From Bolinopsis microptera (taxonomy: Eukaryota; Ctenophora; Tentaculata; Lobata; Bolinopsidae), in the NCBI RefSeq assembly GCF_026151205.1, contig NC_087076.1, forward strand, positions 2,813,902-2,877,901: 64,000 nucleotides of DNA, written 5' to 3'. How positions within the stretch are numbered: the stretch's first letter is position 1; each line of letters opens with the position of its first letter. Below the pieces are notes generated by a model that worked only from the letters and a program-made list of their open reading frames with translations, was not told the origin of the DNA and did no database searches. Of this stretch, positions 42,005 to 60,840 are shown in pieces. The translations under genes and the position numbers were made by a program.

Positions 42005-45000
42005 TTAATTTTCAGAAATAAATTGTTTTATTTCTTCTAGCCAACCTAATTTTTGCTCGAGATTTGCAAATGTTCTCTCAGTGTTGCGATAACCCCCAAT
42101 ATGGTCGGGATTTGCGCCGTAAGGAATATACGTTCCTATTTTCTGGGCTTTTGGGGGTTCGATATGTTTGGCGGGACCATACGGGAACCAGCGCTGTAAC
42201 ATCTCGTATACCCCTAAAAAAAGAAGAAATATAAACTGTCTATTTGTTTTTGTCCTTCCCGGCTGTGGAATGTCACCATTTATTTCGGAGATATTCTGTG
42301 TCGGTTTTAAAGGAATAACTGTGAGAATATCAAAAATACTTGGCTCCAGGTTTAACATCAAATTAAAAACTTGTTGTGTCTGAAATGCTAATATTATTTG
42401 TAATACATGATTAACTTAAACTTCTCTTACATTAAGGAAGCAAGAAATAGTTTAAATTATCCCGCATGCTAAACCAACAAATTACCCAAGTTATAACAAG
42501 TGTTCGCCACTTGTTTTTTATTGGCGAAATCTATAAATTTCAACATTTTAAAAACCTGATTTTATAGTATTAAGGTCAGACTTATTGATTATGCTCTGAC
42601 ATTGAATTTGGTTATTCTTATTTAAATCAAACTTTAATAATAATAATAGTGCAGGGGTAAATTCATCTTAACAGATGAGCAAACAAGGCCACGTTAGTTT
42701 ATTAACCCCCACACTGTACGCTAAATAGGTGGTTTTACAGTAAGAATATGAGCTAATATCTGTGCAGTTTGCACTCACCAAGAGTGACGCCGAATTGAGG
42801 TGATGATCTGAACATTCTTGCAGGAGCACCCTTCCAAAACACAGCCATGCCTTCCTCCCGGTAGAGGCGCTTAGCACAGCTTATTAAACCGGTGTACGGC
42901 TTCACGCCCTCTTTTGGTTTCACCTGAAATAACTAAACTGTTAAATAATGTGATTGGTAGCGTAGTTTTTATCGTTCTTATAAGTAATATTTTTGGGAAC
43001 TAGTACAAATTTACAGCAAAACTCAAATGAAGCCCTGAAAGGTGGAGGAGTGGATAATTTACAGAACATTCTAACTATGTCATAGTGACAGATTATTGAC
43101 AAGTGACATGCAGGGCACCCAAGACTCCTGCTTAGTTTTATGATGACGGAGTACCATAACTATGTACCTGCAGTCTTGTCTTTATTACATCAGCAGGCGT
43201 AACCAATGACGCGGAGGGAACACCAGCTAACGTGGCCGATAACAGGATCTTTGGAAATGAGGTCACTCCCGTTTCCCTGTCCGCAAATCCTTTCTTCAAG
43301 TGGGCGTAGGTTGGGAAGTAGATTGCAGAGAACGGTGCATCACGTAATAAACAAGCTCTCGCTCCCTAGATAGTAGTAATTGGAAGGGGGGGGGGGGGGC
43401 AAATAATTTTTAAATTTGTAATAAAGCTGTTATTATAATAATTTTTATATTTTTATACTATTATATTGATTTGTCTTTGAGCTAGCTGAATAGAAACCTT
43501 GTAGAGACCAGCAAATCCGAGTTCTTTAGCAACTTGCATAGCTGTCACGTGGTTATTAGAAACCACCTCCCCAGCTATCTGCAGTCTTATCTTTACAATC
43601 TCTATCGGGTTTGTGAACATCACTTGCGCACATCCTCCCTGTACAGCAGCAAATATAAATAATCTCTATTATATACCGCGCCTCTCTATACCGGGTACCT
43701 CGATACACAGGGCCTCTTCTTTCTCCAAAACTTTAAGTTAGTTTGCTCGTGTTGTGCAAGAAATTTGATTTATCATAGCTCATATCGTATTTGGTGCTGA
43801 TTTGAGTACATATCTAGCTGTATTCCATCACAATACGGCACAATACGTGCATATTATGACCTATTGGGAGATGTTTGACGCGTTATTAGGGAGCCTGTGA
43901 ACGGGCGAACCTTCCAATACTAATTTTTTTCTACCGTGAACTTTTCGTTTCTCCCGACAGGCCCGGTATATAGAGATTCTACTGTATCGAATATATTATC
44001 AGTTTATAACTATTGCATTTTATCTCTGGATAAAACTTGACACTTAATAAGTTACAGAGAGGAGGCAGCATGCAACCTGTTGTATTAAAGAAGACACTGT
44101 CGTAATCTTACCATTCCTCCAGCGAGTACCTCGCCATAAAATGGGATGCTCCCTGATTTAGGGTCTGTAAAATATTGTCTGACAGCATCGTTCGTCTGAA
44201 AATATGGATACACCATTTTAAGATTCTGCTAAACTCAAAAAATTGTTTTGTGTTGATTTCCATAATAACTCTATCCCAACCAGTTGTATAATTAGGGCAT
44301 AAACTGAAACTTGAGCCCGACAATGCGCGCAATCTGCATTTCATTCTTTGAAGGAACAAAACACATTCAAAAACGTAATACTCAGAATTTAACTAACCGT
44401 CATTTTTATAGCTTTTTCTGGAGCAACTCCACAGAGTTGGGGTAGAATACCCCGATATAAACCTCTAAAGCCTTCAAACTTAAGCACTTTCTTAAAACAA
44501 TCAAAGCTGTTTTTATAAAGAACTTCGTCCGCGATGGTTGTCACTTGATTTTGTAACCGCGTTTTAACCAAATCTATTGGGTAAACTGTCGCTGCTCCGG
44601 CCGCTGAGATCTACGAGTTAGGATTTGCAGCAATAATTACCAATTACAATAATTTTTTATGTGATAGCGAAGGTGAGGGGTTTGAGGTCAAGTCCTTCAG
44701 ATGCTTGCCTAGCGGTGAATGCCAAAAGGACATGTTGTAACTTGTAGCACACTACACTACCCAGCTGCGCTAAGCATGAGTGCATGTTTGTATTTCTAAG
44801 TGAGCTAATTAGCTAAGGCATAAGCCACTTAAGCTTAGCCACGAGCTGCGAAGGATTGGCATTGTCGGTCAACAACAAACAGAACGTGTTGCTAGATATC
44901 GAGTCTGCATGTCATTTGAATTACGCGCGACTCGACAATCCGCGCGTCAAAATCGCGCTAAGAATTCAATAAATAATTTCATGTTATCGCGCCTTCCGTA

Positions 45001-48000
45001 AAATTTTATCCAGTCGAGGTGTTAGTTCTAAGCGGCGTGTTAGGATTACACGCATTTCGACATTGACTGGATAGTGAGCTGAAGTGTTATAAATTGCAGA
45101 TTGTGGAACTGGTAACAGCTTCTTACCTCCTCCGACAGAACTCATACCGAAACGGTACGCCTGCACCGCCACTTGTTGACTAGCTGTTATCGGCTTAGAC
45201 TCTTCCTGCAAAATCAAGGTCAAATTAGACGACATCCATTATGAGGCATTGTTATTTGACCTTCTAAAAATAGTGTACAGTAATTAATTTATCAGAATAT
45301 GTGATACATGTCTTGGACACCCATATATATCAGATATAAGGGCATAATTTAATAGACTTTAGGGTATTAGATTATATTAGCGAACAGGAAAGTTTCAAGT
45401 TTTTTTTGGCACATTTCCAGACCACTTCACGGACACAGGGGGAGGCCCAACAGGTTTACCCTACCCTGGAATGTTGATATAACTCTCAGTCTGTACTCAA
45501 TGCCAGAATATCCCCGGTCTGCTATACAATTTGCAATTTTTTTAGTACAGTTACACCCCGATTTACGGGGGACCCCGATTTACTGCGGTATTATTCTTTT
45601 TTTTTGTGCACCAGCAAAAATATAGCTTGCAAATTAGGATGAAAAGATTGTATAGTGTATACATGATAATAATAAAAAATCACCTCTTTAGCTTTAGTTT
45701 GTTTAGATACAGTCATAGTCGGAATCAGCAGAGCGAAATCCTTTAGAGCGATTTTCCTGAAAATGTTCCAAAATTACATTCACAGATTTTATTAATTTTA
45801 GATGACTTCAAGGTATTTTTAGTTATGTAACGAAGGATTCTAGAACATAACTTAATAAAAAACAGGTACTAACCCCGAATTGTCGTGATCTAAAAGTCGC
45901 CATAGCAACGTGGTTTGGACGGGAGTTATAGCTTCTGAAAACCGCCAGGCTGCCTGGTCAAACTGGTCTGAAGTTATCGAAACGTAAAAAATACATAGTT
46001 ATTAGTTATAGACTATCAAACATCATGAACATAATTAACATAGTACGGTTAAAGTAAAGTTACACAGTGGGGATAATTAACCTTTAGTTATCTCCTTCTC
46101 CTCCAACTTGTCCACCACATTAGAGAAGATCTGTTTAACCAGCTCTATGTTGTGTATCAGGGCGTTCAGTGCTGTGAAGTAAGAATAACTTATCCGGGTC
46201 GTCTGCGCAGTCATTATCTGTATACATTGATTTACTAATACACAGTTAGAACACTTAGCTAATTGAATAATTGTTCAATTAGACAGATATTTAAAGTAGA
46301 AACTATACCGCTGCATGCTGTACAGGCCATGTATTATACACTATACATGCGATACACTGTTTACAATTAGGATGGTATGTTAACTATAGAAGTTGTACAA
46401 GTCTTGTACAAGTTGTGCCCTGTATCGATATGAAAAGCGTATTTTAAGCAAATATTTGCTCCATAATATGTCAATTTCTCAGGAGGTTAACGGGTTTCAG
46501 TTTGGACGACATCCAGCATTCATTATTACAGTACACATGAACATGATCATGTCTGTTTTGTATTGGATATATATATATATATTTTTAGATATTAACTATG
46601 TTTTATATTTTTGGTGACCATATGACCTATAATTCCTAACACATAAGATTATATGTAATTATAGGAAACGTCTGTTAAATAACTGCATAAATTGTAAATG
46701 CGACAAAGTCAGTGTCTTGAAGATTCGAGAGGGGTTCTACCAGTACACTTTGGTAAACCTGAATCTTTGAGCTGGATAATGTACACCATTGAATAGTAAA
46801 CCATTATTTTGAAATCGCAAATTATTGTTCAGTAATATGGAGTTTTTTGTATGATTATTATGTTAACCATTAGTTACCCAAGTACGTGGCTCATCACACA
46901 TTTAATCCTTAAGTAATATTTTTCCATTTTAATTAGGTTGTGATTATTATAATCGCTCTACAGATGAATCGAGTTATCAGATTTAGTTACGAGATCAGTA
47001 TCGGTACATTGGACACGGCTTATCAACAGTTCCAAAATCAGCATCAAGAATTGGTCCATTGCCTTGCTCTCTTTTAGCTTATATATATTATATATACATG
47101 TACAATACAATATACATGTCTGTTTACTTATAATGTTTATTTATTATAAACAGAAGTTAAATGATTACCCCGAGCAGGTTGTCTCTCAAGTATTTGGTGA
47201 AAGAAGGTCCTTTAAGTTTAGCCAGGGTATCACAGTACGCCATTGCATCAATACTGCCATCCGTCGAATCTTTAATTAGAGACTGAAAAGCTTGCCGAAT
47301 GTGCTCCCTAGGTACACTCTGAAAACAATTGTTATTTTAAATATGTGACGGTTAAAAGTCTCTTAGGATGCAAGAGAAATTCTAGCTAATAATATAATTA
47401 ATAATAGTTAATAGTTAATAGTACTATGTGTACAGTATGCAACTGTATAGTGTATAGTATTAAACTATTTTTTATACTTTTTGGGTGACAACATTATGAC
47501 AGTATGTACATAACACAAAGATAATATGAATTATAAGGAAACAGTTCTGTTAAAACTAACTGCAATAAATTGTGGAAATTCGTCAGGTCTCATGTGTCTT
47601 TGAAGATTCCGCCCAAAGTGCAGTTTCATCCAGCTACAGTCTTTGGTAAACTGAACCTCCTTATACGCCTGAAAATGTACTATCCTAGTTAGAAGTCTAG
47701 TTTAAATCATAATGTTTGCAAACTCGCAAATTATTGTTAACAGCATAAATATGGAGTTCTCTTTAAAACGTATGTATAAAATGTTCAAGGCAACATCTAA
47801 GTTACACCCAAAGTACCTGTGTTGCCTCCATCACACCCATATAATCCTCAACAGTAATATTCCCCTTTCCCTTCTTATCGCACATCCTAAACGCAAGTCT
47901 GAAATGCGCATCTGGCATCCTCATAATCCGCTCTACAGCCATGAACTCGTCGAGTGTGATCGAGCCAGAGTTACCGAGATCAGCTACTCTGGCTACAAGG

Positions 48001-50097
48001 GACACAGCTTCATCAGACACGTCCCAACGCAGGAAGTCACGCACAAAGACCATTGAAGGGATCACTAGTTGGCCTTGCTCATTTTCTATCGCATACTGAA
48101 ATAAGGGAGATTAAGTGGGTAAAATGTTTGAAAATATTGCCAATTTGCCCGATGATGGAAGAATAAGCAATTGTAAGGCAGCATTAAGATTTAAGGGGGT
48201 ATACACCAAAACTGGGTTTTGTGTCGGCCAACCCAAATGACCTCACAGGAAGTTCAGTGACCATTTGCACTTGTCTAGAAGTCTCTACCACATTCCTATC
48301 GACATTTTAGAATGTATAGATATCAAGATTTAACACGTATGTTCACAAGATGTGAACACTATTTGAGTTATAGCTTCTCAATAAAACAAATATTTTTTCC
48401 GAGAAATGCATTTTAACCAGAAAATGCTCGATTACAGAAATGCGTGTTTTCAAAAAAAATTGTTTGGTGTGGAAACGGTGCGCTAGATGGTCACTGAACA
48501 GTGAACTTCCTGTGAGGTCATGTGGATTGGAAAATTTGGTGTATACCCCCTTAGGCTTAAACAGTAAGACTCATTCAAACAGGCAAATAAGTCAATTAGA
48601 TAATGTAACAAAAGGATTCGATATTTAATTTAACACCAAGAATTTACTGGCTTACTCATATTACCAAACACTTTTAATCCTGTTGTGAAGTTACATACGG
48701 GTGATGACTAAAAAATGGGACTTTTTTCAAGGGTCTTTTTAGTGTCGATAAAACTATTTTTGGTTCAAACCAATGAAACAGCGTTGTAAAGCGGGCAATT
48801 TTGAACAAGTATGGTCAATGACAAGCGCCCATGAGCCCATTTTGATTGGTTCAGGAGGGCTTCTTTCTTCAAGCTCAAAAATCCGTCTGTACAGTTGGGC
48901 CTAAAATCGTGTTGGCGCAGTCTCTTCTTTTGTGCCCTAAGGCCCATGTATGCTTGCTAGCCATATTCCGGGCATGGACATGTGTTGCCAGGACTCTAAA
49001 GAAGTCCTCTATGGGTTGAGATTGTCAAAATTTACTTTGGTCGATCACTTTTGGGACGAAATTAACCCTATGGGCTGCAAGTAAAGATGTGGTTTTCGCA
49101 GAAAAATACGATCTAGCCCCATCCTAACGAACCACCTTCCACCCTTTGGGGATATTTTCTTGTAGGAACAACACCAGGCAAGGCTCCAAGCACTTTGATT
49201 TTTACGTGGTACCATTATAGACCATACTAAAGCCGATAGTTTGACCTAGCCTCGATCTTTCACACGGTAAAATTTTACCCCTCAGGTGGTTTTGAGCTCA
49301 AATATCTTCTGACTGGTTTTAGCTACGCTGAGGGGTGTTGAACCCTAGTCTTAAGCATACAATTCCCTACTTCTTGACGTATGGACAACAGTCAGACCGA
49401 AATACTTCTTCTCAACAATAGCAAAATATAGCGTTTAGTCAAGATTATACATATTTTCGAATTTGCTCACGACTTCCCATTTTTGGGTGTTATCTCTAAT
49501 CTTAGGGGCTTTGACACCTTTCAGACAACAAACATTTAGTCATGTGACTGCCCTGGAAATATAACCGAGAGTACAGCCAAAACAGATCACCAGGGATCTT
49601 GGTAGGGTGCCGGTTATGTGGCTCACCAGCAGTTCCTATTGGGTCATTTTCGTAAGTGCTATAATACAGGATGAACTTTTTGTCTCTGTAGCTCTGGCTA
49701 CCGACCTCTGCTGCTAAAATCGCTTTAGGATGTGATAGATAGGAAGTTTAGGCATACTCTCTGATAAATTGTTTTTGGTATGGAAGCTTTAACTACCTGT
49801 GAGGCGACTTCTGTGAACAGTGCTTTACTGTAAAATGTTTATAGGACCCCTCCCCTAGTTCGAGACCATTATCGGGGACAAAGATCAACCAATTTGATCA
49901 AATGGGGGCGGAAACTGTTCGAGTATCGTTCAGAGTAACTGGTGGTTGTGGTAAAATATCAAAATTTTGTTCAGGTGGAAGCTGAGGAATTTAAAACATG
50001 TAGTCCCATTTTTTATTCATCACCCGTTATTATATCTCACCTTCTTGAAAATTCTTCTGAGGGCTGATCCTGTAGTTGCTCTTTCTTCCAGTGACAT
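42005..50097 (-). CDS. SLC25A12: Calcium-regulated mitochondrial aspartate/glutamate carrier (aralar/citrin)
   Basis: Fourteen minus-strand exons form one uninterrupted 652-codon frame: 50097-50041, 48095-47817, 47668-47561, 47318-47169, 46217-46082, 45967-45874, 45756-45684, 45205-45127, 44603-44398, 44195-44112, 43638-43498, 43365-43168, 42923-42779 and 42213-42005. Human paralogues are about 675-678 residues. The N-terminal half carries EF-hand-type segments ([53 protein letters not shown]). The C-terminal half has three carrier repeats with signatures [22 protein letters not shown] and [11 protein letters not shown], and ends [20 protein letters not shown]. By family knowledge it exchanges matrix aspartate for cytosolic glutamate across the inner membrane, activated by cytosolic calcium, feeding the malate-aspartate shuttle. 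It could be the single invertebrate orthologue of SLC25A12 and SLC25A13. Intron 1 is nearly 2 kb and filled by two inverted-repeat elements. Confidence 0.96.
43668..43990 (-). repeat. Dispersed repeat with tctctata termini, copy 1 (in carrier intron)
   Basis: Read on the minus strand, cagtagaatctctatatacc, gagaaacgaaaagttcacgg and gtattgtgccgtattgtgat occur in the same order as in the plus-strand copy at 58960-59200. The opposite end also has a tctctataccggg motif, consistent with terminal inverted repeats. Confidence 0.7.
46590..46870 (-). pseudogene. Decayed duplicate of carrier exon 3 and its flanking introns
   Basis: 46590-46870 aligns by eye, with many substitutions and gaps, to 47455-47790, which contains exon 3 (47668-47561). 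Shared blocks include ggaaac..tctgttaaa..aactgca, cttgaagattc, ctttggtaaac and cgcaaattattgtt. The exon core is broken by gaps, so it does not encode a usable second EF-hand-region exon. Confidence 0.65.
48193..48552. mobile_element. MITE-like element in carrier intron 1 (360 bp)
   Basis: Termini aagggggtatacaccaaa and ggtgtataccccctt are inverted. Subterminal regions continue the inversion (aaatgacctcacaggaagtt against aacttcctgtgaggtcat). No coding capacity. Confidence 0.8.
48697..50026. mobile_element. 1.33-kb element with 25-bp inverted termini in carrier intron 1
   Basis: 48697-48721 (acgggtgatgactaaaaaat) is the inverted partner of 50002-50026 with one mismatch. The interior shows no domain I recognise and stops in all frames; likely non-autonomous. 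Together with the 360-bp element it makes up most of the intron. Confidence 0.75.
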
Positions 50098-51777: not shown

Positions 51778-54700
51778 GTCGACATCACTGGCAGACTACC
51801 TAGGAGTAGAAATAGATCAGCGTATTTTGAACATGTTTCTTGATGACGATACAGAGCTGGAGGTCTCCATTCCTAAATTCTTTAAGGTAACACTCATTTT
51901 ACTGGCTATGTTGCTATATTTTGCTATATTTTGCTATATTTTGCTATATGTTGCTATGTCTTGCTATATCTTGCTATATGTTGTTTGACAACCTCATATT
52001 AAAGACGACAAACAATTGCTTAAATTTGTTCCAAAAACTTTGCTACATTTTACACTAATAATGAGACTTTCTCTACGTCAACGAAAATTTATAGATTTTA
52101 GAAGTTTTACAATTAGATGGGTAGGAATGCAGGATATCTGAGGCTAGTTGAACTATGATGAGCATAATTGAGTATTCAATAATGTAACTTTATATAACAT
52201 TAGATTTCAAGACATAGTGTGTATTATAAGCTAAGCTGTTCCGCCATGAAAAACGTTTGACCCAAGTTACACAATTTATGGGCAAGTCGATCTTATATCA
52301 TTGTACAATGGACACAGCAGTACCAAGTACACAAATCTGATAGAACGAATAACGGCCGCGGCTGATGGTGCGATAAAGTGCGGTATTAAGTCAATAGTGC
52401 GATAAAGTGCGGTATTAAGTCAATAGTGCGATTCCGTACCTACTGCTGATATGTTACCTCTGCTTTTATGATCACTACTGTAAACGAGAATGGTCGGAAC
52501 AAATGTGGTAATTGTTTTTATTGTTTATTTTATATAAACAATAATAAATGTAATAGTAATACCACATTTGTCAGGCCTGTTTTCTCGCGCCTTGAATTGG
52601 GAAATTCAACAATAACTACAGTGTATACAACTATATTTCAGTTTTTGGAGAAGTTTGGAATTCATCCATTGACAGATCCGAGGTTCACCGATGTTATTTC
52701 ATTGTTAAAAGCGACTAAACATGATGAATCGGAGCAGCTTAATGATTCCAGTCAGTTCCCTGAGACTCTAGAGATTGAAGAATTTTACAGGTATGTAAAA
52801 AATGGGTTTTGACACAATTTTGCAAGGAATAACTAAAATGTAAGACCTAACAAGCATTCCCAAACCGATTTCATTTGATTTGCTCCTTCATAAAATAGAA
52901 AAATTATAATTTCATATAATTTGAACACGAGTCTTGAAACACTCTGTATGTACATATGTAATATGTATAGTGTATACACTATACTATACAGTGCAGGTTA
53001 GAAATCCTAAATATTCATAATCTTTATCTTTAGTATTTCCGGTTTGTTCACTATTTCAAGTTTCTGGAATTGTGCAGTCTTATCTGTTGGAATCGAAACC
53101 ATAAATGAAGTGATATTCGAGGAAAATTTGCTGATTCGATTACATTTACGCCAATTTGTAACATGTAACAATTCATGAAGTAAAACACCTCTCAATATAT
53201 TTTCAGGTGTATTCGACCGAACCTCTCATTTCTTAACAAGATATTTGCTGGCAACTTGATCATTTCAGAGTGGCTGTCGTTTGCTACTGAGTGTGAGAAA
53301 ATATACAATCAAATGCTTGAAAACAACGAAGGACAAGTTAGTATTAAAAGTATCAATGGGGGGGGGGGGGGGGGGGGGGGGTGGGTGACTTGGGGACATT
53401 AGCGGACATTGACGGACATTGGCGGACATAAGCTGACAAACATTATGAGCATTTTTTGCACATAATTTGGACAATTGGAAGGAGCCTATATTCATAAGGA
53501 GCCTATATTCACAACCTATCGAGGCATCCCCTTTGCGATTCAATCTCGGAAAGCATGCCTCCCCTTTGCAAACCGAACTCGGAAGCGGGAGCTCTGCCTT
53601 TAGATGTACGTATCGAGATGACTCGGGTCTCGGACAGAGTCAAAAAATTTACAAAGTTATCCTGGAAACAACTTTTGTTTACGTTTCAGGTTACCCTGAT
53701 CATTATGAGCCGAACATATTTTTTCAAAGCCTACCATTAGACACACGATTTTGGACTGGAAGCTTCCCCTTTGCACTTTTTCTGAAAATTACTTTTGTTT
53801 ACGTTTCATGCTAACCTGATTATTATGATAACATAAACATTTTTTAAATATCCAGATTCCTTAATCTTCTTCTTGTGTGTTTGATTGAACAAATCAATGA
53901 TCATGATTATGTTATCCTTCTCTTCTTGATTTCGCCACTTATTCCCTCTCTACCAGCATTGTGCTTGTTTATTCGTCACTCCTCTCTGATCCTTTACGGG
54001 AAATCAACGTCACGTGACTCCATACTGGACTCTAGACAGTGACTCAGCTCTAGACGGTGATTAGCACTGTTCCAGACACTGTCTGCTTGCCGACAGCCCT
54101 GTCAAGCGCAGAACGCCAGAACCACTCCATGTGTTTGTAGATCACGTGATACCAATGTAGATTGTAGTGGATATATTGGCTTGCCTATGGTCACGTGTTA
54201 TCGATCCTGCATTCTGATTCGCTCCAGGGCTGCATGTCTATAAATACCCACACACAGACCAGTAAGTCAGTTACTTCTTAGTCTGTTTTGATATTGATAC
54301 CCAGTATAAGTAGTGAAGTTATTTCTTCTGACCTCGTATTCCATTATTTTTCTTTCGTCTTTTTAAACCATAACAATTTTGATGAGGATCATAGAATCAA
54401 AGAATTTCTGCCCGTTTCAATTTCAGCTGGTATTGTTTCGAAGCCCATAGCTTTTTAGAAAAAATGCCACCCTTGCATTTCTGATAAGTATACATCTTGT
54501 ATCCATGAACAACGGTCCTCGACATCTCACTTTGCTTTGTGCCCCAAAATACCTTTAAAACAGGATTTACTGGGTGAACCATATAAAATTAGACTTTTTT
54601 TGAAAAAGTATTACCCGCCTAAATTTCAACAAAATTTAGCAATATTTAGCAAAATTTAGCGAATTTAGCTGTCCACTTTTGTCCGCTAATGTCCACCAAT

Positions 54701-57700
54701 GTCCGACAATTAAATGTCCTGTCCTTTTTGGATTCTATGAGACAAGCGGACATAGATAGACGTGTCACACCCCCCCCCCCTCCCCCCAACAATTTAAGGA
54801 TACGCTCAGCTAGAATTGCAATATTTGCAATATCTTATTATATCTATAATTAATATAATTACATTGAACACACTCCGTGTGTCACATAATAATTGTTCAG
54901 TTATATAATTTGCACCCATGCTCACTGCTCAGTGCTTACCTATGAAGTTTACAGATTGAATGTGCGAGTTGAACACTAAGGTACTATACAGGTAAGGTAC
55001 TTCATGATAATATCGCAGGTGTATAGCAAGTTACCCAACTTGTTTTTAAAAGGACAGGAAGGAGCGTTTAATGTCAGCATATGTACAGTTGACGGACAGG
55101 TAATTAAATTTAATAACTTAGTCTGTAAATCTTATGAAATGCAATTATGACTCAGCATTGTACGTGCTATACCTTCACAGAAAGTCGGATAATTGACTGC
55201 CTTTGTACATGATACAAAATCACGTACTGATAGAACATGTACCTGCTGTTATTTCAGATGTTATCATTTGGCGAAGACAAAAGACACATCCCACTGTGTG
55301 CTAGTGTATTACCCCTGTTGTATGGAATTGCAGTGACTAAGTTTACCAGTAGCTATGTTCACCAGTTCATTGGAAAAGAAACCCAACCAATTGATGGCAG
55401 TTTCCAACTTGGACCAGGAGGTAATTACATTGTTGGAACTTAGCCAGCATATTATAAATCACCTGTAAATATGATACATGATGTGCCGGCTGCTATCTTA
55501 CACTAAAGGAATGCTGCGTTGACAAGTTGTAATGAAAACTAAGCATACTTTGCCGCTATCCTATTTAGAACAGCAAGCAATATAAATATCATAACAAAAT
55601 TATCTGAAACTGAGTAATTAATTAATTAACCAGGTAATTAATTAATTGTCTGAAACCAGGTAAGCCCTACAACCCACTCACGGACGCAGGAGGAATAGTT
55701 CTGACAGATATTCTGTGTGAAGACAAGTCTACCAGCGAATCATTCGAGCACTTGTACACTAAGGTAATAAAATAACTTGCTAGTCGATATTAAATATTTA
55801 CAGCGTGCATTGCATTATATATTATAACAGTGTCTTATCTCCTGTTCTCTTATAACCATTATAATTATCTGTTATCTAGGAAGTTATTTATAGATTTCAA
55901 TAAATAACTCCGGCAGATAAGAAGTTTCACAGGCGAGGAAGCGGGGGTTGGTTTCAGTAACTCGTTCTGTCTCAGCATGTTAAACAATAACAATGAACTG
56001 TACGGTATTGGACACCACCTCAGAGAAAGAAGCTCTCTACCACACAGTGATAGACTGGATAGCACGGTGGAGATGTACATGCATCTCAACTCTATCAATG
56101 TGGGAACTGATGCAGGCTCTATTATTGCAGCTACTCTCGCTTCTGGGGGTGTGTGCCCACTTAATTATAAGAAGGTACATTTATCTTGCAATAAAACAAC
56201 AACATTGATTAATGAAACAAATAGGTTCAAAATGGTAAGGACACGTTACGAATTTGTTTTTCTAGCTTGAAACTCCATTCATAACGTAAAATTTAGGATT
56301 ATGGAAAGTAATTAAATTGTAGAATGAAACATAATATTTGAATCTTTTAGTAGAGTTCAGAGACGGAGAAACATTTTAAACATTTGGGCAACTTGCCAAC
56401 TTCATGTTGATATACATAACACTACACAATCTATTAGTTAGATACATAATGTATGAGTTTAACAGTTGAACGACACAATACAATCAGAAATAAAAATCAA
56501 CAGAACTAAAAAAGTTGATCACAAAGAGGCTATTATTTTTGCCAAGGCTTTTTAAAAATAAAGAAAGTTTTGGCTGCTTTGAAAAACAAGTCATTGACTC
56601 TTTCAAAGCAATATTGAATACTGTTTATTCTGGATAAAAAATATTTGCGGTCTTCTGTAAAAAAATATGTGAAATAGCTAAAAAAACAAAACTCTCAGAA
56701 TTCACTTAGAGGTGGTTTTAGCATACTGTATTACATAACCTAATTTTAACCCCCCTACCCCAACCAACCTCTCCCCCCCCCCCCCAACAACCCCCTCCCC
56801 CTCCCCGTAAGGCATTTTCAATATAGATGATACATCTTGTCCAGATTTTCAATATTCGAACTCAATAATATAATACTATATCTTCAACAGCGTGCTGTGA
56901 AGATCTTACTGGTGATGTTGAAAAAACTAAGTGAGTCAATTGGTCGTTAACAACACTGTCCTTCTTAAAACGTCATAACAACAACGTCAATAAAACTATC
57001 TGCATCATGCTACCGACCCCATTCACAAATCTGATCTAATGTCTTGAGATAGAGAAGATTTATCTAACCCAGTGATCTTCTAGCCCGGTGTGAATGGTCA
57101 TAGTTCTTGTAAAACTTCGATTCCCGCCCTTGTACTTTTGGAGAGCTGAAGAGCAAAATTTCAGTACTTTAATTTAGTGTTAATGATATTATAAAATATA
57201 TTTATTTTATTAATCCAACGCGAAAAAACAAATCTAACTTAAACTTCACTTACTCGTCCAATATGTAGACCAAACAAGTCATAGTATAAGGTTTGCTCAT
57301 TTCAGGGTCTGCTGTAATGAGGATTGGCAGCTCTGTTCTGTTGTACCAACCAGGGTACCCCTCAAGTCTGTCCAAGTCTGCTAATGTTTCGTCTGGTACC
57401 AAATATATCTCCCCTTCCACCTGCTGTTGATAGTGTTGTGAGGAAAAGGAGCAGACTAATAAATAATGAATTTAAATATACACCTCTACAGAAATTAAAT
57501 ACTCCTGGCAATTAAGTTCTAATTAAGTTCGCAGAATCCAGGACTAATTTAAAATAATCTGTAAAAACATACGTGTCCGCTTCCTTTGCGGTTGAGAAGG
57601 AATGGAATAGCAGATTGGGGATCTACCAACAACGGATATTTGTCAACCAAACGTCCAGTTCCTATGTAGTCACAGCCGGCTAGATATCCATGATTCCAAA

Positions 57701-60700
57701 AATCCCTCTTAAGTGTCCCATATACGAATACATAAGTCATTATTACGACATTCACATCATCTGATAATGTATTCCATTACTTAACATTGTGTTGCTGATA
57801 GGTTAACCTCACCTGAGGGATTGTTAACTTTTTGATTGTATGCTGTCAAAAACATTAAGTAGCTTAACACAATTGGTAATGGCGATGAAACATGGATATT
57901 GCAAAAAGAAGACACCATTACCATCATATGTATATATAATAATACAAATCGTAATAGACTTTGGTAAAGGTGGGACATGATCCACTTTTTCGCTAGAAAA
58001 GTCAAAACAATCTTTAAAAAACTATCTGAAAGAATTTAGCATTATTTTATTCTACAGCAGTCTCAGTAAACTGGATCACCTTCTCACTTTCACTTGAATG
58101 TATATTAATTTATTTTTCGAAAAAGGGGAAAAAATGTTTTGGGAATGATTCATGAATTTTACGTCCATTCTGTATGCAAAAAAAACAAATTAAATACTAA
58201 TGTTAAAGTTGTCCTTATATCTTAAAGATATAACTTACAACTCGTAGATGATAACCAACAATGATAGGTCCAATAATTGCGATCATTAAAAATATTTTAG
58301 CTGGCTGACAATTTATGATGAGTTTGGTGCCTTGCAAAGATCGACCGTGATCCCAGTACCGGGGCCCGGCCGTAGCCGGGATTGGACTTTTTACCAAATC
58401 CCGGTCCCGGCCAAAATACCAATTTTACCGCGATTTGTACCGCGATTTAAGATACAACTTCAATAAAGATTTTGGAAAAAATTTGCAGCGTGACGGGAAT
58501 AAATTTCTAGAGAAAAGTAATTATATAGCACATTCACTTTTTCGACTTTAAACTTCAAATTGAAAACAATTGAATATCTTGAACATGGATCACTTCTGCA
58601 TAAATAGTTGATTCCGCTAAATTTTGTGTCCAAAAAGAGCTAAAATCCCGGTCCCGGTCCTGGTCAAATTTGACTGATCCCAACCAATTTCAAATTGGAT
58701 AAAAAATCCCGGTCCTGGTCCCGGCCATTTCAAAATTCTTATCCCGGTCATTTACTGGTGCCGTGTCAGTACTCACATGACCCAGAGGAGTTTTACAGGT
58801 AATTTCCCCGAATTCAGTGAGGGATACTCTGAGTCTCATGATGTCTTGTGGAATGAATGACTACTCTGGTGCCTATGCCTTTGAGGTAATGTTAGAGTTT
58901 TGTTGTAAATACCATTTAAATTGCATCAACAGCATATCAATAATGTTTAGGGAAAACACTTTTATACAGTCAAACCTCTCTATACTGGGCTTCTCTGGGG
59001 ACACGAAAAGTGCACGGTATAGAAAAAAAACCTGGTATAGAGAGGTTTGCATTCGATCTCAATTCCTAATACCTTTCAAGTGTCATATACCCCATTAGGA
59101 GTATTATAAGAAAGTATTGTGCCGTATAGCGATGGAATAAAGCTCCACTATATATTATGAACTCACATCACCACCAAATGCGATGTGAGCACTAAAAAAT
59201 AACATTACGTTTGCCTTAAACAGGTTGGTTTACCATCTAAGAGTAACGTTGCGGGGCTCATGATGGTTGTTGTTCCAAATGTCATGGGCATGTGCATATT
59301 CTCGCCACAGCTAAATAGTACTAACAACAGTGTTAAAGGTGTTCAATTTTGCAAGGTTAGTTGGTTAAATGTTCGATAATATAAAATAAGGATTAGCTGC
59401 ATTTTGCTCACATTTACACATTTGCTCACATCACTCACAGACAGCCGCTCTGGCATGGTTAACCACCTTCCTTGTGTACGTGTTGTTGGTTACTCATATG
59501 AGCGGGATATAAATACCTCATTTCATATTTTAAGGCTGATAAATTACATTATTTTATGGCTGATAAATTTGCCATTTAACCCTTGATCACATGGAAACAA
59601 TATACATTGTTCCACAATGATAAGGAAATGACATTTGATCAATTTTATCATAATATATGTAATTAACTCAAATTATGTGAGTGTGTGACCCACCTTGTAT
59701 AATTATCACCTTTTGTATATAATGCTCATATTTATTCTGACACAAAATTGTCGCGATCTTGTTGCCAAAATTTATAAAACATAACCTCATCCAGTTTAAA
59801 TTTCAGAAGTTTATTGAGCGCTTCAGATTTCACCTATTTGAAAGGAACTTGAAAAAGAATGATGACAAGCTCAATCCTACTATAAGCAAACTTGGAGAAA
59901 CTAAAGTAATCATTAAATTGTAGATGTCATATCAATAATAACCTGTTCATCAGTAATTACAGATTACATTTCATTTCGATAGAAATTTAAGACTTTTAAT
60001 CTTTTAAATTTGTGCGGTTGCCAATGAAAAATAATGTTTCAGGAGCAGCAAATGATGTCTCTTCTCTTTGCTGCAGTTACAGGGAACATGAGCCAACTCT
60101 ACCGATACCATGCAGATAATATTGACTTTAATTGGAGTGACTATGATGGTAGGACAGCTCTCCATCTAGCTGTTTGTGGAGGTAACACCCACTTCAGAAA
60201 AATCGATATCTTGACTTGTTACCTTAATATCAGAATTTGAAGAACACTAGTTTTTCTCTACTATTTAAGAAGAGAAAGAAAGAAAACTATTTTAAAGAAA
60301 AATTTTATTTCAAGGAATGATTTAAAAAACTAACTTTAAGCTGCTGGTCTTAAATGATTCAGTTCACAAATCACAAAATCTTTGACAGGTATCTTTAGTA
60401 ACCATCTTTTGCGCACATAAAAAACGATTAAAAATAACAATTTCAGAGCAAATGGATGTGGTGGTGTTTCTAGTGAAGCAGTGCAAAGTGAACGTTAATC
60501 CTACAGACAGGTTTATCATTGCTTCCATCATTTGGACATTACTGCCATTTGTCATGTTTTCTAGACAATAATGCTTTTTTGCCACATTTTTATCTGTGTG
60601 TAGATACCCGACATGACTAAGATATTAAATGTCATTAAATTATTCAATCTTTTGGTTGGGATGGAGTAATACTGATTAATATGCCTACCTGCTGCACTGT

Positions 60701-60840
60701 ATTCACCATGTCTTTTTCACAGATGGGAAACGAGTCCAGTGGATGATGCCAGGAAACTACAAAACTTTTCCATATGCAACTTTCTAAGAAAAAACGGGGG
60801 CTTGACTTTTGGCGAAATGGATGCAAACTTAGACTTTTAA
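51778..60840 (+). CDS. GLS: Kidney-type glutaminase homologue with degenerate active site (N-terminal exon missing)
   Basis: Thirteen exons in one frame to the TAA at 60840: 51778-51886, 52642-52790, 53207-53336, 55019-55099, 55258-55420, 55660-55763, 55917-56174, 58799-58885, 59224-59355, 59807-59905, 60043-60181, 60447-60510 and 60723-60840. Domains in order: N-terminal helical region (PLTDPRFTDVISLL), serine-dependent glutaminase fold (VSICTVDGQ, YVHQFIGKE, GVGFSNSF, ISPNSVRDTLSLMMSCGM, VVVPNVMGM, NSVKGVQFCK) and ankyrin repeats (LLFAAVTGNMSQLYRY, DYDGRTALHLAVCGG, VVVFLVKQCKVNVNPTDRW). Canonical catalytic residues are mostly changed: the Ser stays (CASVLP) but the SxxK lysine is gone, NPMVNAGAI has become NPLTDAGGI, and CGMYD has become CGMND. 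The frame and splice sites are intact, so I read it as an expressed pseudoenzyme or an enzyme of altered function, not a dead gene. Mitochondrial location is inferred from family only. Confidence 0.92.
51901..51983 (+). repeat. 10-bp tandem repeat in intron
   Basis: About eight copies of ttgctatatt with variants (tatgt, tatct) directly downstream of the first recognised glutaminase-like exon. A separate 33-bp duplication (gtgcgataaagtgcggtatt) is at about 52367-52430. Confidence 0.8.
53355..54790. mobile_element. 1.4-kb element with G/C-run ends and subterminal gacatt repeats
   Basis: The left end is a G run followed by repeated gcggacattgacggacatt-type motifs (53395-53436). The right end has the complementary motifs (tgtccgctaatgtccaccaa at about 54679) and closes with a C run at 54770-54786. 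It occupies the intron between exons 3 and 4 of the glutaminase-like gene. No transposase is visible. Confidence 0.6.
53870..54371 (+). mobile_element. Possible solo LTR or captured promoter inside the 1.4-kb element
   Basis: A TATA-box context (gtctataaatacccacacac) at about 54237 is followed by tcagttacttcttagtctg, resembling an LTR transcription start, within a block beginning near tgtgtgtttg and ending ccataaca. Direct target repeats and a primer-binding site are not evident, so this is tentative. Confidence 0.3.
57250..57740 (-). CDS. GGACT: Gamma-glutamylamine cyclotransferase (GGACT), nested antisense
   Basis: Two minus-strand exons, 57740-57573 and 57423-57250 (stop TAA at 57252-57250), lie inside the glutaminase-like intron 56175-58798. 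Exon 1 reads MTYVFVYGTLKRDFWNHGYL, with the YGTL glycine-loop signature of the cyclotransferase fold; exon 2 begins VEGEIYLVPDETLADLDRLE and contains GWYNRT. The catalytic acid of the family is likely the E in DRLEGYP, by position. A second upstream ATG would add MNVVI; I prefer the internal start because MxxVFVYGTLK matches the human N-terminus. By family knowledge the enzyme frees lysine from gamma-glutamyl-lysine while forming 5-oxoproline. The predicted size, about 113 residues, is shorter than human GGACT (153), so a further 3' exon is possible, though the frame ends cleanly. Confidence 0.88.
58340..58765. repeat. CCCGGT-rich repeat
   Basis: Multiple copies of atcccggtcccgg and cccggtcctggtc occur at 58398, 58645 and 58708, with cagtaccgg near the left and tactggtgcc near the right. 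This looks like a degenerate element with CG-rich subterminal repeats, inserted just before the glutaminase-like exon at 58799. Confidence 0.5.
58960..59200 (+). repeat. Dispersed repeat with tctctata terminus, copy 2
   Basis: acagtcaaacctctctatac, ggggacacgaaaagtgcacg and gtattgtgccgtatagcgat match the carrier-intron copy at 43668-43990 in reverse orientation. It lies between the exons ending at 58885 and starting at 59224. Confidence 0.75.

What the first reader, a model, noticed from the sequence alone, without database searches (positions are those of the whole stretch)
51778..60840. A glutaminase-like gene that has lost most of its catalytic residues but kept its frame
Compared with human GLS as I remember it, Ser286 is kept (codon about 55303) but Lys289 is missing because CASVLPLLYGIA replaces the QSCVKPLKYAIA-type segment. 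Gln285 becomes Ala, Tyr249 appears as Lys, Asn335 becomes Asp (55683-55685), the Glu381/Asn388 segment is rewritten (FCLSMLNNNNELYGIG) and Tyr466 becomes Asn (58856-58858). Tyr414 and Val484 are kept, as are the flanking structural motifs and ankyrin repeats. Thirteen exons splice in one frame without a stop. This suggests selection for a non-catalytic role (scaffold, partner regulator, polymer component) or an altered substrate.
Basis: partly seen in the sequence, partly recalled or inferred. Interest (0 to 1): 0.8.

Follow-up and report, generated by a model that had tools for sequence, protein, structure and literature searches.

The report
Catalytically dead glutaminase family, comb jelly
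This comb-jelly gene has the shape of the glutamate-making enzyme glutaminase but has lost the chemical parts needed for the reaction, and it belongs to a family of such inactive copies that natural selection appears to have kept.

Summary
A 13-exon glutaminase-like gene runs from 51,778 to the stop at 60,840; all 12 introns are GT-AG and there is no internal stop. It has EF-hand_14, glutaminase and ankyrin domains. Eight of ten catalytic or substrate residues of human GLS are replaced. The assembly statistics match Bolinopsis microptera, a comb jelly. I found 16 glutaminase genes: six keep all ten residues, ten do not. The window gene groups with five other dead genes (support 100/100; 9 of 12 introns shared in position and phase). 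They share N388L and Y466N, so those losses probably predate the duplications. The five relatives are strongly constrained (omega about 0.06). Omega 1 is also rejected for the window branch, although that branch is saturated. In the relatives the ankyrin domain has about one tenth of the omega seen in four intact paralogs. Best reading: a selected glutaminase pseudoenzyme, probably a non-catalytic scaffold or regulator acting through its ankyrin repeats. Ctenophore glutaminase expansion is already published; my searches found no report that members are dead. Expression, orthologs and biochemistry remain untested.

The parts
51778..51886 (+). coding exon 1 as seen after an AG acceptor, read in frame from 51779 (start of the EF-hand_14 domain); in-frame ATG at 51833-51835; the true first exon is uncertain
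   Evidence: spliced alignment (from 51812), extended by eye and translated; ATG position
52642..52790 (+). coding exon 2 (EF-hand_14)
53207..53336 (+). coding exon 3
55019..55099 (+). coding exon 4; Tyr249 -> Lys at 55028-55030 (lid loop)
55258..55420 (+). coding exon 5; Q285C (55297-55299), S286A (55300-55302), K289L (55309-55311)
55660..55763 (+). coding exon 6; N335D at 55683-55685
55917..56174 (+). coding exon 7; E381M (55977-55979), N388L (55998-56000), Y414 kept (56076-56078)
58799..58885 (+). coding exon 8; Y466N at 58856-58858
59224..59355 (+). coding exon 9; V484 kept (59248-59250), G483N shared with the sister clade
59807..59905 (+). coding exon 10 (end of the glutaminase domain, linker)
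60043..60181 (+). coding exon 11 (ankyrin repeats)
60447..60510 (+). coding exon 12 (ankyrin repeats)
60723..60840 (+). coding exon 13 with stop TAA at 60838-60840
   Evidence: (to 60807), extended to the stop

Best explanation
The gene encodes a selected, catalytically dead paralog of GLS. Shown from sequence: it keeps EF-hand_14, glutaminase-fold and ankyrin domains but lacks the Ser286-Lys289 dyad and most residues that hold glutamine. It shares an ancestor with five other dead genes (the D286/R289 clade), which share its intron positions and its N388L, Y466N, G483N and Q416H changes. Inferred: glutamine hydrolysis was lost before these genes duplicated, and the proteins were kept as non-enzymatic oligomers whose ankyrin repeats bind partners. 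They would act as scaffolds, or as regulators of glutaminase-based assemblies, while six intact paralogs do the chemistry. My estimates: a selected pseudoenzyme 0.9; acting mainly through ankyrin-mediated protein binding about 0.5; mixed assembly with active GLS about 0.25.
For: Residues: window K,C,A,L,D,M,L,Y,N,V at human 249, 285, 286, 289, 335, 381, 388, 414, 466, 484 against Y,Q,S,K,N,E,N,Y,Y,V in human GLS and in 6 of 16 genes. Domains: PF04960 E 3e-64, profile 1-286 of 286; PF17959 E 2.2e-11; Ank_2 E 4.7e-6. Clade with L010, L011, L012, L013, L014x: 100/100. 9 of 12 window introns at the same column and phase as in at least one of them, none shared with the intact intron-bearing L016. 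19 residues shared with at least 4 of the 5 and absent from seven canonical sequences. Constraint: the five relatives fit omega 0.059 (lnL -6689.0 against -7112.2 at omega 1); the window branch fits 0.16 (-6689.0 against -6696.1 at omega 1). NG86: L010-L014x dN 0.045, dS 1.27; L010-L011 dN 0.0115, dS 0.080. No stop in 522 codons, although about 20 nonsense changes are expected per neutral substitution per codon. Ankyrin part of the relatives: omega 0.024 (0.010-0.049) against 0.257 (0.18-0.36) in 4 of the 6 intact paralogs, while the catalytic part is similar (0.063 and 0.081). The window's ankyrin part is 59% identical to L010, its catalytic part 44%.
Against: No expression, ortholog or protein data exist here. 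The window branch is saturated in synonymous sites: its length ran to the upper bound, so its omega is rough. It has the longest end branch within its clade (1.21). The ankyrin test was chosen after seeing conservation windows, rests on long branches, left out L006 and L007, and was made in the relatives, not on window orthologs. The dead clade's ankyrin part (L010) is no closer to human GLS than that of an intact paralog (L002) (41% and 40%), and the window's ankyrin part is also 54% identical to intact L016. The EF-hand part shows no such shift (omega 0.066 dead, 0.031 intact). Loss of glutamine hydrolysis does not exclude a new reaction. Cellular location is unknown because exon 1 is incomplete.
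Confidence: 0.85

Rival explanations
1. Regulatory subunit: the dead paralog joins active GLS in mixed dimers, tetramers or filaments and tunes them, as catalytically dead paralogs do in trypanosomatid AdoMetDC and deoxyhypusine synthase.
For: EF-hand_14 and glutaminase fold kept. F355, F373 and N375 of the human filament interface kept (interface residues from PMC10912226). Precedents for activation by dead paralogs (titles and abstract starts). Human GAC Y466W, which cannot hydrolyse, forms stable filaments.
Against: F378C, D412E and Q416H at the filament contacts; activation loop rewritten; R387E; Tyr394 is His. Only 34-39% identity to the six intact paralogs and human GLS over residues 240-540. 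In the human filament, lid Tyr249 closes the pocket; it is Lys here.
Confidence: 0.25
2. New chemistry or a new ligand: the pocket was rebuilt to bind or act on another molecule.
For: In the five relatives much of the rebuilt pocket is fixed: L249, D286, R289, L381, L388 and N466 in 5 of 5, so the altered pocket is under constraint.
Against: The window does not keep D286 or R289 (it has Ala and Leu). Five of its eight replacements are Cys, Ala, Leu or Met, which looks more like a filled pocket (inference). I recognised no known catalytic motif.
Confidence: 0.12
3. Decaying gene: a recent pseudogene that has not yet gathered stops.
For: Longest end branch in its clade, 1.21; expression unknown.
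Against: No stops, 12 of 12 introns with GT-AG. Omega 1 rejected for the branch average. A neutral phase longer than about 0.15 substitutions per codon would probably have left a stop. This does not exclude very recent loss.
Confidence: 0.06
4. Assembly or gene-model error hides an intact catalytic site.
For: None found; no transcript is held to confirm the model.
Against: The changed residues lie inside exons, and N388L and Y466N recur in five other loci.
Confidence: 0.02

Closest known systems
Human GLS/GLS2 (kidney and liver glutaminase; PDB 8gwr, 5uqe, 8szl)
   Same: Domain order EF-hand_14, glutaminase, ankyrin repeats (human order recalled); 39% identity to GLS over residues 240-540
   Different: 8 of 10 catalytic/substrate residues replaced; activation loop and phosphate-site residues changed
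Ctenophore glutaminase expansion (Pleurobrachia 8, Mnemiopsis 9; PMC4685580)
   Same: The same kind of expansion; 16 genes found here
   Different: That paper speaks of them as GLS enzymes. Here 10 of 16 have lost some of the ten residues, from one (L004, K289M) to ten (L012, L013); the window gene lost eight
Prozyme-type dead paralogs (trypanosomatid AdoMetDC prozyme, DHS paralog; PMC5201418, PMC3663545; titles and abstract starts seen)
   Same: Catalytically dead paralog kept beside active copies
   Different: Unrelated enzymes (recalled); activation of a partner is reported there and untested here

Membership tests
Glutaminase homology family (Pfam PF04960 fold) | Full-length match to the family profile | tested here: met
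   E 3e-64, profile 1-286 of 286
Animal GLS/GLS2-type glutaminase | EF-hand_14, glutaminase and ankyrin architecture | tested here: met
   PF17959, PF04960 and Ank_2 in order
Serine-dependent glutaminase (active enzyme) | Ser-x-x-Lys dyad (S286, K289) | tested here: not met
   Ala and Leu in an ungapped register
Serine-dependent glutaminase (active enzyme) | Substrate residues Y249, N335, E381, N388, Y414, Y466, V484 | tested here: not met
   only Y414 and V484 kept
Serine-dependent glutaminase (active enzyme) | Glutamine hydrolysis in an assay | not testable with these tools
   needs purified protein
Pseudoenzyme under selection | Catalytic residues lost, fold kept, purifying selection | tested here: met
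   the window-branch omega is rough because of saturation
Pseudoenzyme under selection | Expressed protein with a non-catalytic role | not testable with these tools
   no transcript or protein data held
GLS filament former | Filament interface residues F355, F373, N375, F378, Q379, D412, Q416 | tested here: inconclusive
   F355, F373, N375 kept; F378C, D412E, Q416H; L379 as in the six intact genes here
Processed pseudogene | Introns lost, frame broken | tested here: not met
   12 introns, open frame

The most novel reading that the evidence does not exclude
Comb jellies turned much of their enlarged glutaminase set into a family of non-enzymatic ankyrin scaffolds or prozyme-like regulators. 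On this reading, part of what was counted as extra glutamate-making capacity in an animal group said to rely on glutamate signalling is really a new layer of control or structure.
Probability: 0.3. Interest if true: 0.8.

Novelty: new variant of a known kind. Interest (0 to 1): 0.58.

Why it matters
The published account that I read counts ctenophore GLS copies as enzymes and links their number to glutamate signalling and energy demand (PMC4685580). If many copies are dead, as 10 of 16 appear to be here, that link needs re-examination gene by gene. A selected clade of dead GLS paralogs also gives natural variants that separate the scaffold, filament and ankyrin functions of glutaminase from its chemistry; the ankyrin role is poorly understood (own knowledge).

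Tried and rejected
Genome search for COX1 to place the organism found nothing. The PDB matches of an ionotropic receptor from the genome (60 shown of 387) placed no taxon. The species call rests on assembly size (264.65 Mb) and contig lengths (C1 26.206 Mb, C11 20.825 Mb) against the published table for Bolinopsis microptera (265 Mb, largest 26.2 Mb, N50 20.8 Mb). Scaffold counts differ (346 published, 232 contigs held), so it is an inference.

Further GLS genes: searches with PF04960, the window protein (80 of 96 candidates scored) and PF17959 gave no locus beyond the 16, except two ankyrin-only matches on C9; weak matches may be missed. One common clade for nine dead genes (all but L004) is neither supported nor rejected (AU p 0.30); window plus L009 alone is rejected (p 0.026). 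Synonymous distance between the window and its relatives could not be computed (saturated). I did not submit the spliced protein for structure prediction, because the tool states that it takes only proteins that the DNA gives letter for letter.

Rows dropped: codon fits used 468 aligned codons for 6 genes and 259 (human 272-530) for 16 genes, on fixed trees; the order of L012 and L013, unresolved, was set by hand. Human GLS was in the tree but not in the codon fits. The domain comparison used 4 of 6 intact genes (L006 and L007 left out, ankyrin parts not well modelled) and, for invariant counts, 3 or 4 of the 5 relatives. The N-terminal part of L009 and the C-terminal parts of L006 and L007 are poorly modelled.

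Full report
What is there. A spliced alignment to human GLS and to a paralog recovers a 13-exon gene. The aligner gave 51,812-60,807; I extended the ends by eye to an AG acceptor (exon from 51,778) and to a TAA at 60,838-60,840. All 12 introns are GT-AG and the 543-codon frame has no stop. Pfam finds EF-hand_14, a complete glutaminase domain and ankyrin repeats. Where translation starts is open: an in-frame ATG lies at 51,833-51,835, and an upstream exon is possible.

Catalytic residues. Against human GLS (letters from PDB 8gwr) the window has Y249K, Q285C, S286A, K289L, N335D, E381M, N388L and Y466N, and keeps Y414 and V484. The loss is focused: 8 of 10 catalytic sites against 22 of 76 other positions that are invariant in seven canonical sequences (Fisher p = 0.0028). 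PMC10912226 (12 of 24 passages shown) describes how Lys289 activates Ser286 and how Tyr249 and Phe318 lock the substrate. All four are missing here; Phe318 falls in a gap. Hydrolysis of glutamine by this mechanism is therefore not expected. The roles of the other substrate residues are recalled.

Where it is. The genome is 264.65 Mb with C1 at 26.206 Mb and C11 at 20.825 Mb. These match Bolinopsis microptera in the table of PMC11797021 (passages). Scaffold counts differ (346 against 232), so the species is an inference.

The family. PF04960 gave 41 exon matches, which I assign to 16 genes (models). Six keep all ten residues: L001, L002, L006, L007, L008, L016. Ten do not: L004 (one change), L003 (five), L005 (six), L009 (seven), a clade of five (L010, L011, L014x with eight; L012, L013 with ten), and the window gene (eight). 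The five share L249, D286, R289, L381, L388 and N466 in 5 of 5. A search with the window protein added no further GLS gene (80 of 96 candidates scored).

Ancestry. A maximum-likelihood tree of 17 proteins puts the window with those five at 100/100. Intron positions agree independently: 9 of 12 window introns coincide in column and phase with at least one of the five (162/0, 202/2, 246/0, 327/1, 476/0, 520/0, 551/0, 597/1, 618/2). Three of these nine (476/0, 520/0, 618/2) also occur in L009. Nineteen residues are shared with at least 4 of the five and absent from seven canonical sequences, among them N388L, Y466N, G483N and Q416H. So at least part of the loss probably predates the split. The tree needs three changes of state and starred branches force two, so catalytic loss probably happened more than once.

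Selection. A codon model of my own (GY94 type, F3x4, fixed tree) gives omega 0.059 for the five and 0.16 for the window branch; fixing either at 1 lowers the log-likelihood by 423 and 7.1. In a 16-gene fit over residues 272-530 the window branch reached the length bound (omega 0.03; omega 1 worse by 4.4 log units), and another constrained fit shifted several branch lengths. The window estimate is therefore rough and only the rejection of 1 is used. Two close pairs give NG86 dN 0.045, dS 1.27 (L010-L014x) and dN 0.0115, dS 0.080 (L010-L011). Zero stops in 522 codons bound any recent neutral phase to roughly 0.15 substitutions per codon at the 5% level.

What is being kept. After noticing conservation windows, I compared domains. 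In the five relatives the ankyrin part fits omega 0.024 (0.010-0.049); in four of the six intact paralogs 0.257 (0.18-0.36). The catalytic part is 0.063 and 0.081, the EF-hand part 0.066 and 0.031. Counting invariant residues in three genes each: 49 of 78 ankyrin and 177 of 300 catalytic in the dead clade, 28 of 78 and 199 of 301 in the intact set (Fisher p 0.0087); with four genes each p is 0.0074. The window's ankyrin part is 59% identical to L010 and its catalytic part 44%. Against this: the window's ankyrin part is also 54% identical to intact L016, and to human GLS the ankyrin part of L010 is no closer (41%) than that of intact L002 (40%). The test is post hoc and branches are long, but it points to the ankyrin repeats as a retained working surface.

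Mechanism. The best-supported reading is a selected pseudoenzyme. The fold, the EF-hand domain and the ankyrin repeats are kept, and five of the eight replacements in the pocket are Cys, Ala, Leu or Met. I infer an oligomeric scaffold or regulator acting by ankyrin-mediated binding. Mixed assembly with intact GLS is possible: F355, F373 and N375 of the human filament contact are kept, but F378, D412 and Q416, the activation loop, R387 and Y394 are changed.

Literature. Ctenophore GLS expansion is known: Pleurobrachia 8, Mnemiopsis 9, described as enzymes (PMC4685580; its section 6 read; passages). I found no report of dead GLS paralogs. Searches: glutaminase with pseudoenzyme (19 papers listed, none on GLS paralogs by title and abstract start), glutaminase with cnidarian and expansion (11), glutaminase with ctenophore (7), catalytically inactive glutaminase (0), inactive-paralog terms (4), ctenophore with pseudoenzyme (0). 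Only open-licence papers are held, so this does not prove absence.

Verdict. Open points are expression, orthologs and function.

Noticed in passing
window 43168-48110, - strand: Fragments of a mitochondrial carrier (Mito_carr; at 43168-43245, 43579-43641, 44551-44610 and around) and an EF-hand exon (47805-48110) whose best PDB match is Aralar1: probably the aspartate/glutamate carrier gene, a glutamate-metabolism gene about 3.7 kb from exon 1 of the pseudoglutaminase.
   Followed up: partly
window 53398-54710: Intron 3 holds an element with imperfect 41-nt inverted ends (80% complementary, 1231 nt between the arms), perhaps a DNA transposon relic.
   Followed up: no
L001, L002, L004, L005 (C11, C6, C1): Four GLS genes are intronless over the modelled part, and L008 has only two introns there; L016, in the same clade as three of the intronless genes, has 12 introns, none at the position and phase of any other GLS gene modelled here. 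This suggests retrocopies followed by intron gain.
   Followed up: partly
L004 (C6:12008666-12009526): A near-canonical intronless GLS with only K289M among the ten sites and branch omega about 0.09: possibly a young pseudoenzyme.
   Followed up: partly
L010 and L011 (C5 near 16.99 and 17.01 Mb); L012 and L013 (C5 near 16.24 and 16.20 Mb): Members of the dead clade lie in close pairs; L010 and L011 are 99% identical over human 240-540.
   Followed up: no
genome, PF10613 search: 32 matches to the ionotropic glutamate receptor ligand-binding domain, several in clusters, many with long open frames.
   Followed up: no
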